Source of the DNA: Roseomonas gilardii subsp. gilardii | Lineage (GTDB): Bacteria > Pseudomonadota > Alphaproteobacteria > Acetobacterales > Acetobacteraceae | Length of the DNA stretch: 64,000 bases | Direction: 5' to 3' | NCBI RefSeq assembly: GCF_023078375.1 | Contig: NZ_CP095554.1 | Span: 4,137,322-4,201,321, forward strand | Part shown: positions 6,029-10,289 of the stretch, in pieces | Layout: each line of letters starts with the position of its first letter | Position numbering within the stretch: position 1 is the stretch's first letter | Program-made: the position numbers and the translations under genes | Notes under the pieces: generated by a model | What the model saw: only the letters and a program-made list of their open reading frames with translations | Databases searched by the model: none | Told to the model about the DNA's origin: nothing

Positions 6029-6283
6029 TCAGCCCGGCAGGCGCTCCCGCACCAGTGCCATCAGCCCGCCCACATCCGGGACCTGCGCCGCCGCCTCGGG
6101 CGGGATCTCGATGCCGAAGGCGTCCTCCAGGTCCATCAGCAGATTCACATGCGCGACCGAATCCCAGCCGGGCACGTCGGCGGCGGTCAGCCCCTCGTGG
6201 AAGGCGCCGCGGAAGCCCGGGAAGGCCTGACGCAGCACCGTCTCGAAACGCGCGGCCAACCCGGCCTCCACGGTTTCCGCCAT
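6029..6283 (-). CDS. Acyl carrier protein (dedicated, non-FabD/F type)
   Basis: 84 aa. The phosphopantetheine attachment motif is GWDSVAHVNLL, with Ser42 as the modified residue, followed by the acidic helix DLEDAFGIEIP typical of carrier proteins. It is the last gene of a four-gene minus-strand operon, 13 bp after the acyl-AMP ligase stop, with an AAGGGG-like ribosome site in the gap. It does not sit with fatty-acid synthesis genes, so it is probably charged by the neighbouring ligase and donates an acyl group to an acceptor handled by the two WcbI-like proteins. The carrier assignment is firm; the acceptor is inferred. Confidence 0.88.
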   Translation of the reverse strand: MAETVEAGLAARFETVLRQAFPGFRGAFHEGLTAADVPGWDSVAHVNLLMDLEDAFGIEIPPEAAAQVPDVGGLMALVRERLPG

Positions 6284-6296
6284 CACCGAGCCCCTT

Positions 6297-8045
6297 TCAT
6301 GGCGCCGCCTGTCCGCCGGCCTGCAGGAAGGCCGCACGGTTGAGAGCGCGGCTGATCTTGCCGCTGGTGGTCTTGCGCAGGGTGCCGGGAGGCAGGCGGC
6401 CGACATGCACCGGATTGACGGCGAAGCGTTCGGCCAGCAGGGCACGCACCGCGCGTTCGGTGGCCTGGATCGCGGCCCCGTCCTCCGGCTCGCCTTCCGC
6501 CGCCTCGTAGAGCACCACGATCTGGTCGCTGCCGACGCGCTCGTCGGGAATGGAGAAGACCACCGCGCGGCCCGGCTTGATGGCCGGCACGGCGGCCAGC
6601 GCCGCCTCCAGGTCCGGCGCCACCAGGTTGCGGCCGCGATAGATCAGCACATCGTCCAGCCGCCCCAGCACATAGAGCTCTCCGTCATGGAGGAAGCCGA
6701 GGTCGCGCGTGCGCAGCCAGCCATCGACGAAGCGCTCCCCGCTCAGCGCCGGCTCGCCGAGATAGCCGTCGAAGAGGCAATCGGAGCGGAGCAGGATCTC
6801 ACCCAGATCGCCGCCGGGATCCCCGGCCGGGAGGAAGCGCAGCATGCAGCCCTCGATCGGCCTGCCGCTGGACACCAGTTCCACCGCGTCCGGCATGCCG
6901 GGCAGGACGGGCACGACATGCCCCGCATCGAGCGCCGCGCGGTCCAGCAGCAGGCGCGCCGGGCCGGCGGGGTGGGACACCCCATGCTCCCGTGGCGGGC
7001 GCAGCAGGCTCTGCGTCACGGCGAAGACGTTCTCGGCCAGGGCGTAGCAGGTGTGCAGCGCCTCCGGCGCCAGGCCATGCGCGGCGAAGGCATCGAGGAA
7101 CCGGTCCATCGAGGCCGCGCGGCAGACCTCCGAGCAGTTGATCACCGCGCGCAGGCCCGACAGGTCCAGCGCCGCGCCGCGCAGCCGCCGCGCCGCGCCT
7201 GCCAGATGGTCGAAGGCGAAGTTCGGCAGCCAGAGCAGCGTGGCGCGTTCCGCCTCCGCGAGGCGCAGGACCGAAAGCGGGTCGGCCAGCCATTCCAAGG
7301 GATCGAGCGCCAGCACCGGCATGGCCGCGACGAAGGGCAGCACGGTGCAGGCGATCAGCCCCATGTCGTGATAGAGCGGCAGCCAGCTCACCACCTTGTC
7401 GCCCGGCTGCAGATCCAGCGCCGCGCCATAGGCATCGGCCTGCCGCACCAGCGCGTCATAGCCGAGCATCACGCCCTTCTTGAGCCCGGTCGTGCCGGAG
7501 GAATGCTGCAGCAGCGCCAGGTCGCCCGCCACCGGCTCCGGCACGGGCCGCCGCGCCGTGGGATCATCCAGCGCCGAGAGCGCGCCGAAATCCAGCGCCG
7601 GCACGCCGGTCTCGCCCAGCGCCCCGATCGCCTCGCCGAGGCCGCAGACCAGCCCCGGCCGGATGCGCGCCACCAGCGCGCGATGCGCCTCGCGCCAATG
7701 GGCGGTGTCCTGCTTCGCGGTGGGCGGCGGCATCACCGAAGGCACGGCGCCCAGGAACTGCGCCGCGAAGAAGCTGGCGAACAGGTCGGCACGCGTGTCG
7801 GAGAAGATCAGCACCACCTGCCCCGGCCGCAGCCCGGCGCGGCGCAGCGCCACCATCCGCGCGGCGATGCGCCGGCCCAGCTCGGCGGCGCTCAGGGCCT
7901 CCGTCCCGGAAGCTCGGTGGAGCAGCAGCGCCGTTTCCTCCGGACTTTCGTCCAGCGCCAGCAGGAAGCCGGCGAAGTAGCGGGCCCGCGGCGTGTCCGC
8001 CACCAGAGGCTGGCCGAGGGACATGGCCGGTTGCGCGCCCTTCAT
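6297..8045 (-). CDS. Fatty-acyl-AMP ligase-like adenylate-forming enzyme
   Basis: 582 aa ANL-superfamily enzyme. It has the AMP/ATP loop QHSSGTTGLKKGV, WLPLYHDMGLI (characteristic of fatty-acyl-AMP ligases), YALAENVFA, a TRDLGF hinge region, GRLDDVLIYRGRN and the C-terminal catalytic lysine in RKTTSGKISRA. Fatty-acyl-AMP ligases activate a carboxylic acid and pass it to a carrier protein rather than to CoA, which fits the ACP directly downstream. Its ATG overlaps the stop of the upstream WcbI-like gene (ATGA), showing translational coupling. A second in-frame ATG lies at 8024. An acyl-CoA synthetase cannot be excluded without structural comparison. Confidence 0.85.
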   Translation of the reverse strand: MKGAQPAMSLGQPLVADTPRARYFAGFLLALDESPEETALLLHRASGTEALSAAELGRRIAARMVALRRAGLRPGQVVLIFSDTRADLFASFFAAQFLGAVPSVMPPPTAKQDTAHWREAHRALVARIRPGLVCGLGEAIGALGETGVPALDFGALSALDDPTARRPVPEPVAGDLALLQHSSGTTGLKKGVMLGYDALVRQADAYGAALDLQPGDKVVSWLPLYHDMGLIACTVLPFVAAMPVLALDPLEWLADPLSVLRLAEAERATLLWLPNFAFDHLAGAARRLRGAALDLSGLRAVINCSEVCRAASMDRFLDAFAAHGLAPEALHTCYALAENVFAVTQSLLRPPREHGVSHPAGPARLLLDRAALDAGHVVPVLPGMPDAVELVSSGRPIEGCMLRFLPAGDPGGDLGEILLRSDCLFDGYLGEPALSGERFVDGWLRTRDLGFLHDGELYVLGRLDDVLIYRGRNLVAPDLEAALAAVPAIKPGRAVVFSIPDERVGSDQIVVLYEAAEGEPEDGAAIQATERAVRALLAERFAVNPVHVGRLPPGTLRKTTSGKISRALNRAAFLQAGGQAAP

Positions 8046-8932: not shown

Positions 8933-8954
8933 CCTGCCCTCCCCTTCGCCCGCC

Positions 8955-10289
8955 TCAGCGTGCCCATGGCTGCCACCGGATGTAGCGGAGCATGTATTCC
9001 CGGAAGGTCCAGCGGTTGCCGAACCAGGCGAAGCGCGTGTCGCCATCGCACCAGTCGAGGCCGAGGCGCCGCGCCACCTCGGGATGCAGCGGCGTCTGAT
9101 GCGTGCAGGACAGGCCGAGCCAGCCGCGGCTCGCCTGCCGGTATTCCTCCAGCGCCGCCTCGCGCGCCGATGCGTCCAGCAGCGAGGTCCGGCGCAGCAG
9201 CGCCTCGGTCACGAAATGGAAGGGCGCGCCGGCCGGATCGTTCGGCGTGTTGAACAGTGGCGCGCGGCGCATCATCGCCCGCATCTCCGCCGCGACGCGG
9301 ATCTCGCAGTCCGTCTCGGCCTGTTCCCAGGCGGAGAAGCCGGAGGCCGCCCAGTCGCCGGCGATGTCCAGCGCCTCACAGGAGACGGCGAGGTAGCGGC
9401 GGTACAGATCGCCATCCGTCAGCCCCGGCGCCTCCGCCGCGAGGCCGGCGGCGATCCGGTCGGTGTAGAGCGCGCCGCCATAGCGCCCGCCGGGCCAGAG
9501 CCGTTCCGGCCGGTTGCGCGGATCGGGTGCCAGCAGCGGCCAGTGCAGATGCCCCCGCAGCACCGGGAAGCGAAGCCGTTCGGCCAGCCTGCCCGCCTCC
9601 CCGGCCCCCTGCCCGGAAGCCTGGGACCAGAGGGCCACCGGCCCCTCCTCCCCTGCCTCGGCCAGGATGGAGGCGAGATCATCCCCCTCCCCGACATGGC
9701 GCAGGGCCAGCCGCCCCGAAAGGCTCCGCAGGCGGCCGAGGTTGCGGGCGATCTGCCGCGCCTGGTGGTTGCCGGCGATGAGCAGGGTGATGGCGGCGTG
9801 CGTGCCCTCCGCCGGGCCGAGGGCGGCGACGCCCGGCACTGGGGAAAGGCGCAGCGTCTGCCAGGCGAAGGCCAGCCGGCGCGTATCGCCCGAGGGCGGC
9901 TGCCCGGGCCGCGAGGGCGGGCGGGATGCGTCGGGCTGCTCGAAGACGAGGTCGTTGGCGGCATCCGCCCGCAGCAGTTCGGACGGCAGGTCCAGCGTGA
10001 AGCTGCCGGTGGCCTGCGCGACGATCTCGGGCAGGACCGTACCGTTCAGGACCGGCCGCAGCCGCTGCACGCGGTGGCCGCTCTCGTGGTTCAGCGCGGG
10101 AAAGCCCCGTGCCTCCAGCCGCAGCGGCACGCCAGGGCGCAGGGGGAGGAGTTCCGGGGGGAGTTCCAGGCGGCAGCGATCGTCCATGCTCCAGACGATC
10201 TCGGGTTCCTGATGCGACCAGCCTTCCCGGCGGAACAGGTGGCTGTTCCCATCCGCCCCGAAATAGATCAGCAGCACCTGCGCCGCCAT
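8955..10289 (-). CDS. WcbI-like protein with extra N-terminal domain (long paralogue)
   Basis: 444 aa. About 130 N-terminal residues, rich in predicted beta strand, look like an added carbohydrate-associated domain. A Pro-rich linker follows, and from about residue 165 there is a WcbI-like region starting ITLLIAGNHQARQ. Its tail FREYMLRYIRWQPW matches FRDYIVDYIRWRPY of the adjacent gene. The Cys of the GNCQ-type motif is His here (GNHQ), so the two paralogues may have different roles. It is the first gene of the operon, and its upstream region carries paired palindromes at 10331-10359. Function is inferred from context. Confidence 0.6.
   Translation of the reverse strand: MAAQVLLIYFGADGNSHLFRREGWSHQEPEIVWSMDDRCRLELPPELLPLRPGVPLRLEARGFPALNHESGHRVQRLRPVLNGTVLPEIVAQATGSFTLDLPSELLRADAANDLVFEQPDASRPPSRPGQPPSGDTRRLAFAWQTLRLSPVPGVAALGPAEGTHAAITLLIAGNHQARQIARNLGRLRSLSGRLALRHVGEGDDLASILAEAGEEGPVALWSQASGQGAGEAGRLAERLRFPVLRGHLHWPLLAPDPRNRPERLWPGGRYGGALYTDRIAAGLAAEAPGLTDGDLYRRYLAVSCEALDIAGDWAASGFSAWEQAETDCEIRVAAEMRAMMRRAPLFNTPNDPAGAPFHFVTEALLRRTSLLDASAREAALEEYRQASRGWLGLSCTHQTPLHPEVARRLGLDWCDGDTRFAWFGNRWTFREYMLRYIRWQPWAR

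What the first reader, a model, noticed from the sequence alone, without database searches (positions are those of the whole stretch)
6029..10289. Four-gene WcbI-like x2 / acyl-AMP ligase / ACP operon: candidate undescribed surface-glycan acylation system
The four genes are packed on one strand (gaps 22, -4 and 13 bp) and contain an activating ligase with FAAL motifs, its own carrier protein, and two paralogous WcbI-like proteins. WcbI is known from a capsule cluster as a CoA-binding protein proposed to acylate sugar. Supplying the acyl group from a dedicated ACP rather than CoA would be a new variant. The two WcbI-like proteins differ at the key motif (GNCQ-type against GNHQ) and only one has an extra N-terminal domain, suggesting division of labour.
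Basis: partly seen in the sequence, partly recalled or inferred. Interest (0 to 1): 0.75.

Follow-up and report, generated by a model that had tools for sequence, protein, structure and literature searches.

The report
Carrier-protein-fed WcbI acylation operon
A four-gene bacterial cassette looks like a small machine that activates an acid, hangs it on its own carrier protein and hands it to a WcbI-type enzyme that works beside an inactive sister copy, probably to decorate a sugar polymer; related gene sets recur in other bacteria and suggest a partner for an enzyme family whose activity has not been shown.

Summary
Window 10289-6029 (minus strand) encodes A (WcbI-like with an extra N-terminal domain), B (WcbI-like), an AMP-forming ligase closest to FAALs, and an ACP. 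B passes the Pfam WcbI cut-off and keeps the residues matching WcbI Cys14 and His201; A is sub-threshold and has neither.

(1) A and B come from one old duplication. In 12 of 12 surveyed pairs A lacks both residues, yet A is conserved and co-evolves with B: an active enzyme plus a pseudoenzyme.
(2) ACPs sit beside WcbI genes far above chance: 13 of 26 within 500 bp on the same strand (null mean 1.2, 0 of 2000), in 11 genera; none in 28 control stretches.
(3) The loader is exchangeable: FAAL in some loci, FkbH in 8 of 95 stretches, each with an ACP.

I infer that this branch of WcbI proteins takes acyl groups from ACP. A glycan acceptor is likely but not shown: the operon lies between bioY and a DNA methylase gene. 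The exact set was found in 3 of 15 genus genomes. The held papers show no WcbI-ACP link.

The parts
8955..10289 (-). Gene A: WcbI-like protein with extra N-terminal domain (444 aa); probable pseudoenzyme (GNHQ; Asp at the His201 position)
   Evidence: (20.5 bits, below cut-off 29.2)
9840..10289 (-). N-terminal domain of A ('GNS...GWS..E...W' motif); mobile domain without a significant Pfam or PDB match
8979..9782 (-). WcbI-like domain of A
   Evidence: E 3e-61 with the family profile built there
8042..8932 (-). Gene B: WcbI-like protein (296 aa), the likely acyltransferase
   Evidence: (56.3 bits, cut-off 29.2)
8891..8893 (-). Codon of B Cys14 (GANCQ), equivalent to WcbI Cys14
   Evidence: residue role from PMC4104973
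8321..8323 (-). Codon of B His204, equivalent to WcbI His201
   Evidence: residue role from PMC4104973
6297..8045 (-). Acyl-AMP ligase, FAAL-like (582 aa; an ATG at 8024 would give 575 aa)
6029..6283 (-). Acyl carrier protein (84 aa)
6158..6160 (-). Codon of ACP Ser42 (WDSV), expected phosphopantetheine site

Best explanation
The operon encodes a carrier-protein-fed acylation module. The ligase adenylates a carboxylic acid and loads it on the phosphopantetheine arm of the operon's ACP (inferred). B docks the loaded arm in the cleft where WcbI holds CoA, with Cys14 and His204 at the thioester, and moves the acyl group to an acceptor, most likely a hydroxyl or amine of a surface-glycan precursor (inferred). 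A is a retained, catalytically dead sister of B that probably presents the acceptor or completes B's active site as a heterodimer, perhaps through its extra N-terminal domain (inferred; the domain is on 9 of 12 A-type proteins). Shown: gene content; lack of both catalytic-position residues in A in 12 of 12 pairs; one old A/B duplication with co-evolution; strong recurrence of WcbI with ACP and with two alternative ACP loaders (FAAL or FkbH). Not shown: any activity, the acid, the acceptor.
For: Gene content and packing. B keeps, A lacks, the residues matching WcbI Cys14/His201; in WcbI these hold the acetyl-CoA thioester, no activity was found and a binding partner was proposed (PMC4104973). 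ACP within 500 bp on the same strand in 13 of 26 cases, null mean 1.16, 0 of 2000, over 11 genera and 5 families (codes); 0 ACP in 28 control stretches, 352 kb. FAAL within 1 kb on the same strand in 8 of 20 cases, null 1.97, 0 of 2000. FAAL+ACP+WcbI as neighbours in 5 loci outside the genus, one with FAAL and ACP in one ORF. FkbH in 8 of 95 stretches, 8 of 8 on the WcbI strand, each with an ACP; 0 of 69 ACP-less stretches have FkbH. A/B: single duplication, supports 98/93 (both), 94/90 (A) and 96/91 (B); Mantel r 0.95 and 0.89. A's N-terminal domain also sits on AlgX-like, GDSL/GT2, GT2 and methyltransferase proteins, 4 of 10 scanned.
Against: No glycan gene among the four window flanks scanned (mutY, bioY, a DNA methylase, RNase HII). 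69 of 95 WcbI stretches hold no ACP, and 8 of those 69 hold a FAAL-profile match, so neither ACP nor the pairing of loader and ACP is general. The solved WcbI binds CoA. FAAL against CoA ligase is not settled: the 25 NCBIfam matches shown are all far below their cut-offs and a CoA-ligase model scores nearly the same (253 against 259 bits). FAAL within 2.5 kb is only weakly above chance (9 of 20; 40 of 2000 shuffles reach it). Of 30 neighbour genes scanned at related loci, 6 are glycan-type; others include two-component, chemotaxis and transport proteins. B-type proteins have Arg for His in 3 of 12 pairs and Ser for Cys in one. In A of L043 and L045 the Cys column is a gap with a Cys a few residues upstream. 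A-type proteins of L047, L049 and L050 lack the extra domain.
Confidence: 0.5

Rival explanations
1. ACP-dependent acyl transfer is right, but the acceptor is not a glycan: a lipid, a peptide or a small secondary metabolite is acylated.
For: No glycan genes among the window flanks scanned. Only 6 of 30 neighbour genes scanned at related loci are glycan-type; in other classes regulators are common. One locus (L140) has a MaoC/ketoreductase-type protein beside WcbI, ACP and FkbH. FkbH with a stand-alone ACP is described from a polyketide pathway (PMC7489565, passages).
Against: Those 6 neighbours are glycosyltransferase group 1 (two), Glyco_tranf_2_4, GT-D-like, Stealth and pyruvyl transferase; WcbI itself is a capsule-cluster protein; A's extra domain sits on other glycan-type enzymes.
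Confidence: 0.23
2. B is a CoA-dependent acetyltransferase like the proposed role of WcbI, and the ligase and ACP serve a separate step, for example making a fatty acid for a lipid, in the same operon.
For: The solved WcbI carries CoA through purification (PMC4104973). 44 of 113 WcbI domains lie on one side of a supported branch with no ACP on the same strand within 2.5 kb.
Against: The ACP link recurs across 5 families and with two unrelated loaders; a FAAL-ACP fusion lies beside a WcbI gene.
Confidence: 0.15
3. The ligase is a plain acyl-CoA synthetase, the ACP is a loosely linked copy of a housekeeping protein, and A/B are CoA enzymes.
For: NCBIfam scores do not separate FAAL from CoA-ligase models.
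Against: The best solved relatives are a PKS-derived ligase domain (7r7g, 7r7e, 7r7f), fatty acyl-adenylate ligase 3pbk and 3kxw, all FAALs as I recall them, aligned end to end; 4-chlorobenzoate CoA ligase scores half as much and in two separate stretches. The ACP is far from housekeeping ACP (29 bits against cut-off 70).
Confidence: 0.07
4. B is a hydrolase or editing thioesterase that removes acyl groups from ACP.
For: A Cys/His pair at a thioester also fits hydrolysis (inference).
Against: No reason for a dedicated loader, carrier and pseudoenzyme partner if the product is free acid; capsule role of WcbI (inference).
Confidence: 0.05

Closest known systems
WcbI (PDB 4bqn/4bqo), capsule-cluster protein, Pfam PF18588
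   Same: B: same family over the cut-off, same Cys14 and His201 positions
   Different: The published protein was studied with CoA; the words 'acyl carrier' do not occur in that paper. Here WcbI-like genes come as an active/inactive pair with ligase and ACP
FAAL-ACP loading pairs of lipid, polyketide and peptide pathways (PDB 7r7g, 3pbk, 3kxw)
   Same: Ligase closest to these with an adjacent ACP
   Different: Downstream partner is a WcbI-type protein, not a PKS or NRPS
FkbH with stand-alone ACP (proposed glyceryl-ACP formation; PMC7489565 passages)
   Same: Same logic in 8 of 95 related WcbI stretches
   Different: Not found in the first 20 kb of the window, where the operon has the ligase instead; partner is WcbI, not a PKS
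Dlt D-alanylation system (DltA, DltC, DltB, DltD; recalled)
   Same: Ligase plus own carrier protein feeding acylation of a surface polymer
   Different: No MBOAT-type transferase among the four genes; WcbI-type proteins instead
V. cholerae O1 tetronate set (VC0248-VC0252; PMC3441752 passages; its carrier protein and ligase recalled)
   Same: Dedicated acid put on a surface sugar by genes of the same locus
   Different: No WcbI-type protein mentioned in the passages seen

Membership tests
WcbI (PF18588) | Score over the Pfam cut-off (29.2 bits), protein B | tested here: met
   56.3 bits
WcbI (PF18588) | Score over the Pfam cut-off (29.2 bits), protein A | tested here: not met
   20.5 bits; A is a homologue by tree and pairwise match
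WcbI (PF18588) | Cys14 and His201 at the thioester end of the CoA site, protein B | tested here: met
WcbI (PF18588) | Cys14 and His201 at the thioester end of the CoA site, protein A | tested here: not met
   His and Asp instead
WcbI (PF18588) | Fold of the solved WcbI | not testable with these tools
   Structure prediction was busy, then switched off; sequence profile match only
WcbI (PF18588) | CoA binding; sugar acetyl transfer | not testable with these tools
   Transfer was not found for WcbI itself either
FAAL | Adenylate-forming domain with P-loop and C-terminal Lys motifs | tested here: met
   AMP-binding 137 bits; HSSGTTGLKKGV and TTSGKISRAL aligned to solved ligases
FAAL | FAAL-specific insertion | tested here: inconclusive
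   Query aligns with solved FAAL-type chains through residues about 350-400; no structure model to place the insertion
FAAL | Curated NCBIfam cut-off | tested here: not met
   PRK09192 258.8 of 600 bits; a CoA-ligase model 253.2 of 572
Acyl carrier protein | PP-binding domain over cut-off, and Ser in D-S-[LVI] | tested here: met
   23.3 of 20.8 bits; WDSV
Acyl carrier protein of fatty acid synthesis (TIGR00517) | Curated cut-off 70.45 bits | tested here: not met
   29.1 bits: a divergent ACP
Dlt system | MBOAT membrane transferase in the operon | tested here: not met
   No such Pfam match in the four genes or the four flanking genes scanned
FkbH loading system | FkbH in the locus | tested here: not met
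   Not in the first 20 kb of the window; present in 8 of 95 stretches

The most novel reading that the evidence does not exclude
A large branch of the WcbI family is an acyl-ACP-dependent acyltransferase class. Dedicated ACPs deliver chemically different groups through exchangeable loaders (FAAL for carboxylic acids such as fatty acids, FkbH for glycerate-type groups), and in Acetobacteraceae the enzyme works as a heterodimer with a pseudoenzyme sister that presents the acceptor. This would supply the 'unidentified partner' proposed for WcbI and add a new class of carrier-protein-fed glycan acylation.
Probability: 0.35. Interest if true: 0.8.

Novelty: new variant of a known kind. Interest (0 to 1): 0.6.

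Why it matters
WcbI has a solved, unusual fold, binds CoA and matters for a capsule, yet its authors found no activity and proposed a missing partner (PMC4104973). Recurrent neighbours, namely an ACP, a FAAL or FkbH loader and an inactive sister copy, turn that open question into direct assays: load the ACP, add B with and without A, look for transfer. If right, it is a modular route for putting chosen acids on bacterial surface sugars, and gives a lead on function for many unnamed WcbI, ACP and ligase genes.

Tried and rejected
Structure prediction for A and B: two tries met a full queue, the third was answered with 'switched off, do not try again', so no fold comparison was made. The fold and insertion questions rest on sequence profiles.

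Considered: that A and B are two separately acquired WcbI genes. Rejected: one 24-row clade made of an A clade and a B clade. That ACP is common near any glycan gene: 0 ACP in 28 stretches around PF04230 genes of the same family of bacteria, against 26 in 95 WcbI stretches; the control is smaller (352 kb against 1261 kb) and at the far-from-WcbI density it would be expected to show one or two. That A is a decaying copy: dN/dS 0.22-0.35, like B (0.22-0.26) and the ligase (0.22-0.30); the flanks give 0.16-0.27 (mutY) and 0.03-0.05 (methylase). That the operon is foreign by composition: GC 72.4% against 71.9%. That it is carried by plasmids or phages elsewhere: B matched one plasmid record at 28% identity, with no ACP listed nearby, and no phage record. 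That the solved WcbI belongs to the ACP-free side of the tree: not supported, since the profile of 16 proteins from the other side scores it higher (62 against 39 bits), but profile breadth differs, so this stays open.

Limits of the survey: the 95 stretches lie around matches to PF18588 in 200 family (E 1e-3), 289 class and 398 phylum genomes (E 1e-5); some end at contig ends; the window counts with its first 20 kb. The ACP, FAAL and FkbH profiles were built from the same stretches; the weakest ACP match (L116) has E 7e-5. Three of 116 WcbI domains, shorter than 150 aa, were dropped for the tree, whose root is a midpoint. The neighbour genes scanned came from a simple gene caller of mine and may include false ORFs. 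The name 'DUF1796' in my notes for the LGDNCEFGLVQR proteins is recalled; Pfam did not return it for L048.

Literature: 8 searches. One search (WcbI with 'acyl carrier protein') listed one paper, on yeast biotin growth, seen as a listing only; one search listed 11 papers with the word WcbI. I saw the abstract, passages and the Discussion of PMC4104973, passages of PMC3441752 and PMC7489565, and listings of the rest.
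Full report
What is there. The minus strand of window 10289-6029 carries four packed genes: A (444 aa), B (296 aa), an AMP-forming ligase (582 aa) and an ACP (84 aa), with gaps of 22, -4 and 13 bp. B is a WcbI-family protein by Pfam (56.3 bits, cut-off 29.2); A is only a sub-threshold match (20.5 bits). The genome search found just these two WcbI matches at E 0.01. The ligase's best solved relatives are the ligase domain of a polyketide synthase (7r7g and two variants, 188 bits), fatty acyl-adenylate ligase 3pbk (166) and 3kxw (159), FAALs as I recall them; 4-chlorobenzoate CoA ligase has 93 bits in two separate stretches. 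But the 25 NCBIfam matches shown are all far below their curated cut-offs and do not separate FAAL from CoA-ligase models. The ACP passes PP-binding and has WDSV, but is far from housekeeping ACP.

Active and inactive copies. A profile of 18 A- and B-type and related proteins finds the solved WcbI 4bqn at E 1.3e-12. Its alignment places the B motif GANCQ on WcbI Cys14 and B His204 on WcbI His201. In the WcbI paper (abstract, passages and Discussion seen) these two residues hold the acetyl-CoA thioester; no transfer activity was found and a partner presenting the acceptor was proposed. A has His and Asp at the two positions. Twelve tandem A-B pairs occur in the survey (window, L041, L042, L043, L045-L052). 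A keeps the Cys in 0 of 12 (in L043 and L045 the column is a gap, with a Cys a few residues upstream) and the His in 0 of 12. B keeps the Cys in 11 of 12 (Ser in L049) and the His in 9 of 12 (Arg in L043, L045, L050). A thirteenth pair, in L004, fits the rule but was not in the survey count. A careful tree of 41 domains puts the 24 pair members in one clade (98/93), split into an A clade (94/90, not starred) and a B clade (96/91): one old duplication. A and B distances run in parallel (Mantel r 0.95 for 12 pairs, 0.89 for 10 after removing two near-copies; 0 and 1 of 5000 shuffles). Among three genomes of the genus dN/dS is 0.22-0.35 for A, 0.22-0.26 for B, 0.22-0.30 for the ligase and 0.10-0.35 for the ACP. 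So A is a maintained pseudoenzyme, not a relic.

A's extra domain. Residues 1-150 of A form a domain ('GNS...GWS..E...W'). It is on 9 of 12 A-type proteins (not L047, L049, L050) and again on other proteins beside pairs. None of 11 members had a significant Pfam match and the profile found no PDB chain. It has 106 matches in 43 of 100 family genomes, a lower bound since candidates were capped. Of 10 carrier proteins scanned, 4 had a Pfam match: AlgX-like SGNH, GDSL lipase with GT2, GT2, and a methyltransferase. A sugar-related role is an inference.

Neighbourhood survey. WcbI is found in 52 of 200 family genomes (E 1e-3), 6 of 289 class and 15 of 398 phylum genomes (E 1e-5), the window's own genome counted in each. 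I took 95 stretches (1.26 Mb) around these places and scanned all reading frames. 26 of 95 hold an ACP. 13 of the 26 ACPs lie within 500 bp of a WcbI domain on the same strand; random placement in the same stretches gives 1.16 on average and never 13 in 2000 trials. By distance: 13 ACPs in 100 kb nearer than 500 bp, against 3 in about 650 kb beyond 3 kb. The 13 are in 11 genera and 5 families (group codes). All 26 have a D-S motif. As an outside control, 28 stretches (352 kb) around 33 matches to another glycan gene, pyruvyl transferase PF04230, hold 0 ACP, 0 FkbH and 1 FAAL.

Two loaders. 18 of the 26 ACP stretches also hold a FAAL or FkbH; of the 69 stretches without ACP, 8 hold a FAAL-profile match and 0 an FkbH. 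FAAL lies within 1 kb on the same strand in 8 of 20 cases (null 1.97, 0 of 2000), but 9 of 20 within 2.5 kb is only weakly above chance (40 of 2000). FAAL, ACP and WcbI lie together on one strand in the genus trio and in L089, L112, L154, L156 and L160; in L089 FAAL and ACP are one 638-aa ORF. FkbH (TIGR01686, 269-287 bits, cut-off 147, for the three tested) is in 8 of 95 stretches, 8 of 8 on the WcbI strand, each with an ACP. [quoted passage not shown] Two unrelated ways of loading an ACP beside the same transferase-like family argue that the ACP is the donor. ACP presence changes at least 16 times on the 113-domain quick tree. One side of a supported branch (44 domains) has none within 2.5 kb on the same strand; the other side (69 domains) includes all 26 domains that do. 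So I limit the claim to that branch.

Distribution of the operon. A was found in 3 of 15 genus genomes and the four-gene order in the same three. L003 (Roseomonas mucosa ATCC BAA-692) is probably one of them, since contig lengths agree. In all 15 genomes mutY and bioY face the same DNA methylase gene; the operon lies between in 3 and is absent in 12, with almost no space in one of these (L162). The cassette was gained or lost at a variable junction. GC does not mark it as foreign.

Acceptor. The window flanks scanned are housekeeping genes, so they do not name the acceptor. Of 30 neighbour genes scanned at related loci 6 are glycan-type: glycosyltransferase group 1 (L041, L046), Glyco_tranf_2_4 (L050), Stealth (L045), GT-D-like (L089) and pyruvyl transferase (L141); others are regulators, transporters or unnamed. 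A glycan is the most likely acceptor from WcbI's capsule role, these neighbours and the carriers of A's extra domain; this is inference.

Comparison. Carrier-protein-fed decoration of surface polymers exists in kind (Dlt, recalled; V. cholerae O1 tetronate, PMC3441752 passages, carrier protein recalled). A WcbI-type transferase fed by ACP did not turn up in the held papers (searches, seen as listings). I therefore call it a new variant of a known kind.

Noticed in passing
window 9840-10289 and loci L174-L204: Unnamed mobile domain (A4 profile): 106 matches in 43 of 100 family genomes, at least one protein with two copies (L189), no significant Pfam or PDB match; carried among others by SGNH, GDSL, GT2 and methyltransferase proteins.
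   Followed up: partly
L044, L046:3230-4927, L048:5996-6997, L104, L117, L123, L130; also L004:9175-10392: Proteins with a motif like LGDNCEFGLVQR lie near WcbI genes in 7 of 95 stretches, some fused to the same mobile domain. L046 and L048 proteins gave no Pfam family, L046 and L004 no NCBIfam family.
   Followed up: partly
L089:1581-3497: FAAL and ACP in one 638-aa ORF directly before a WcbI gene, with FkbH 1.8 kb further on.
   Followed up: yes
L113, L117, L119, L130, L154, L157, L160: WcbI domains followed by TPR repeats (weak in L154, L157 and L160), up to 1566 aa with a methyltransferase domain in L113.
   Followed up: no
G077, G093, G157, G168: Four genomes of the family hold 6 to 9 WcbI matches each: lineage expansions.
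   Followed up: no
window 5817-10489 and L162-L173: The bioY / DNA methylase junction varies in the genus: the operon in 3 of 15 genomes, absent in 12, whose mutY-to-methylase spacing runs from about 0.5 to 8 kb. What fills the longer gaps was not identified.
   Followed up: partly
L131, L133, L134, L135, L136: A separate five-row clade of single WcbI-like proteins lacking both Cys and His (V/R, F/R, V/R, T/R, S/R): apparently a second loss.
   Followed up: no
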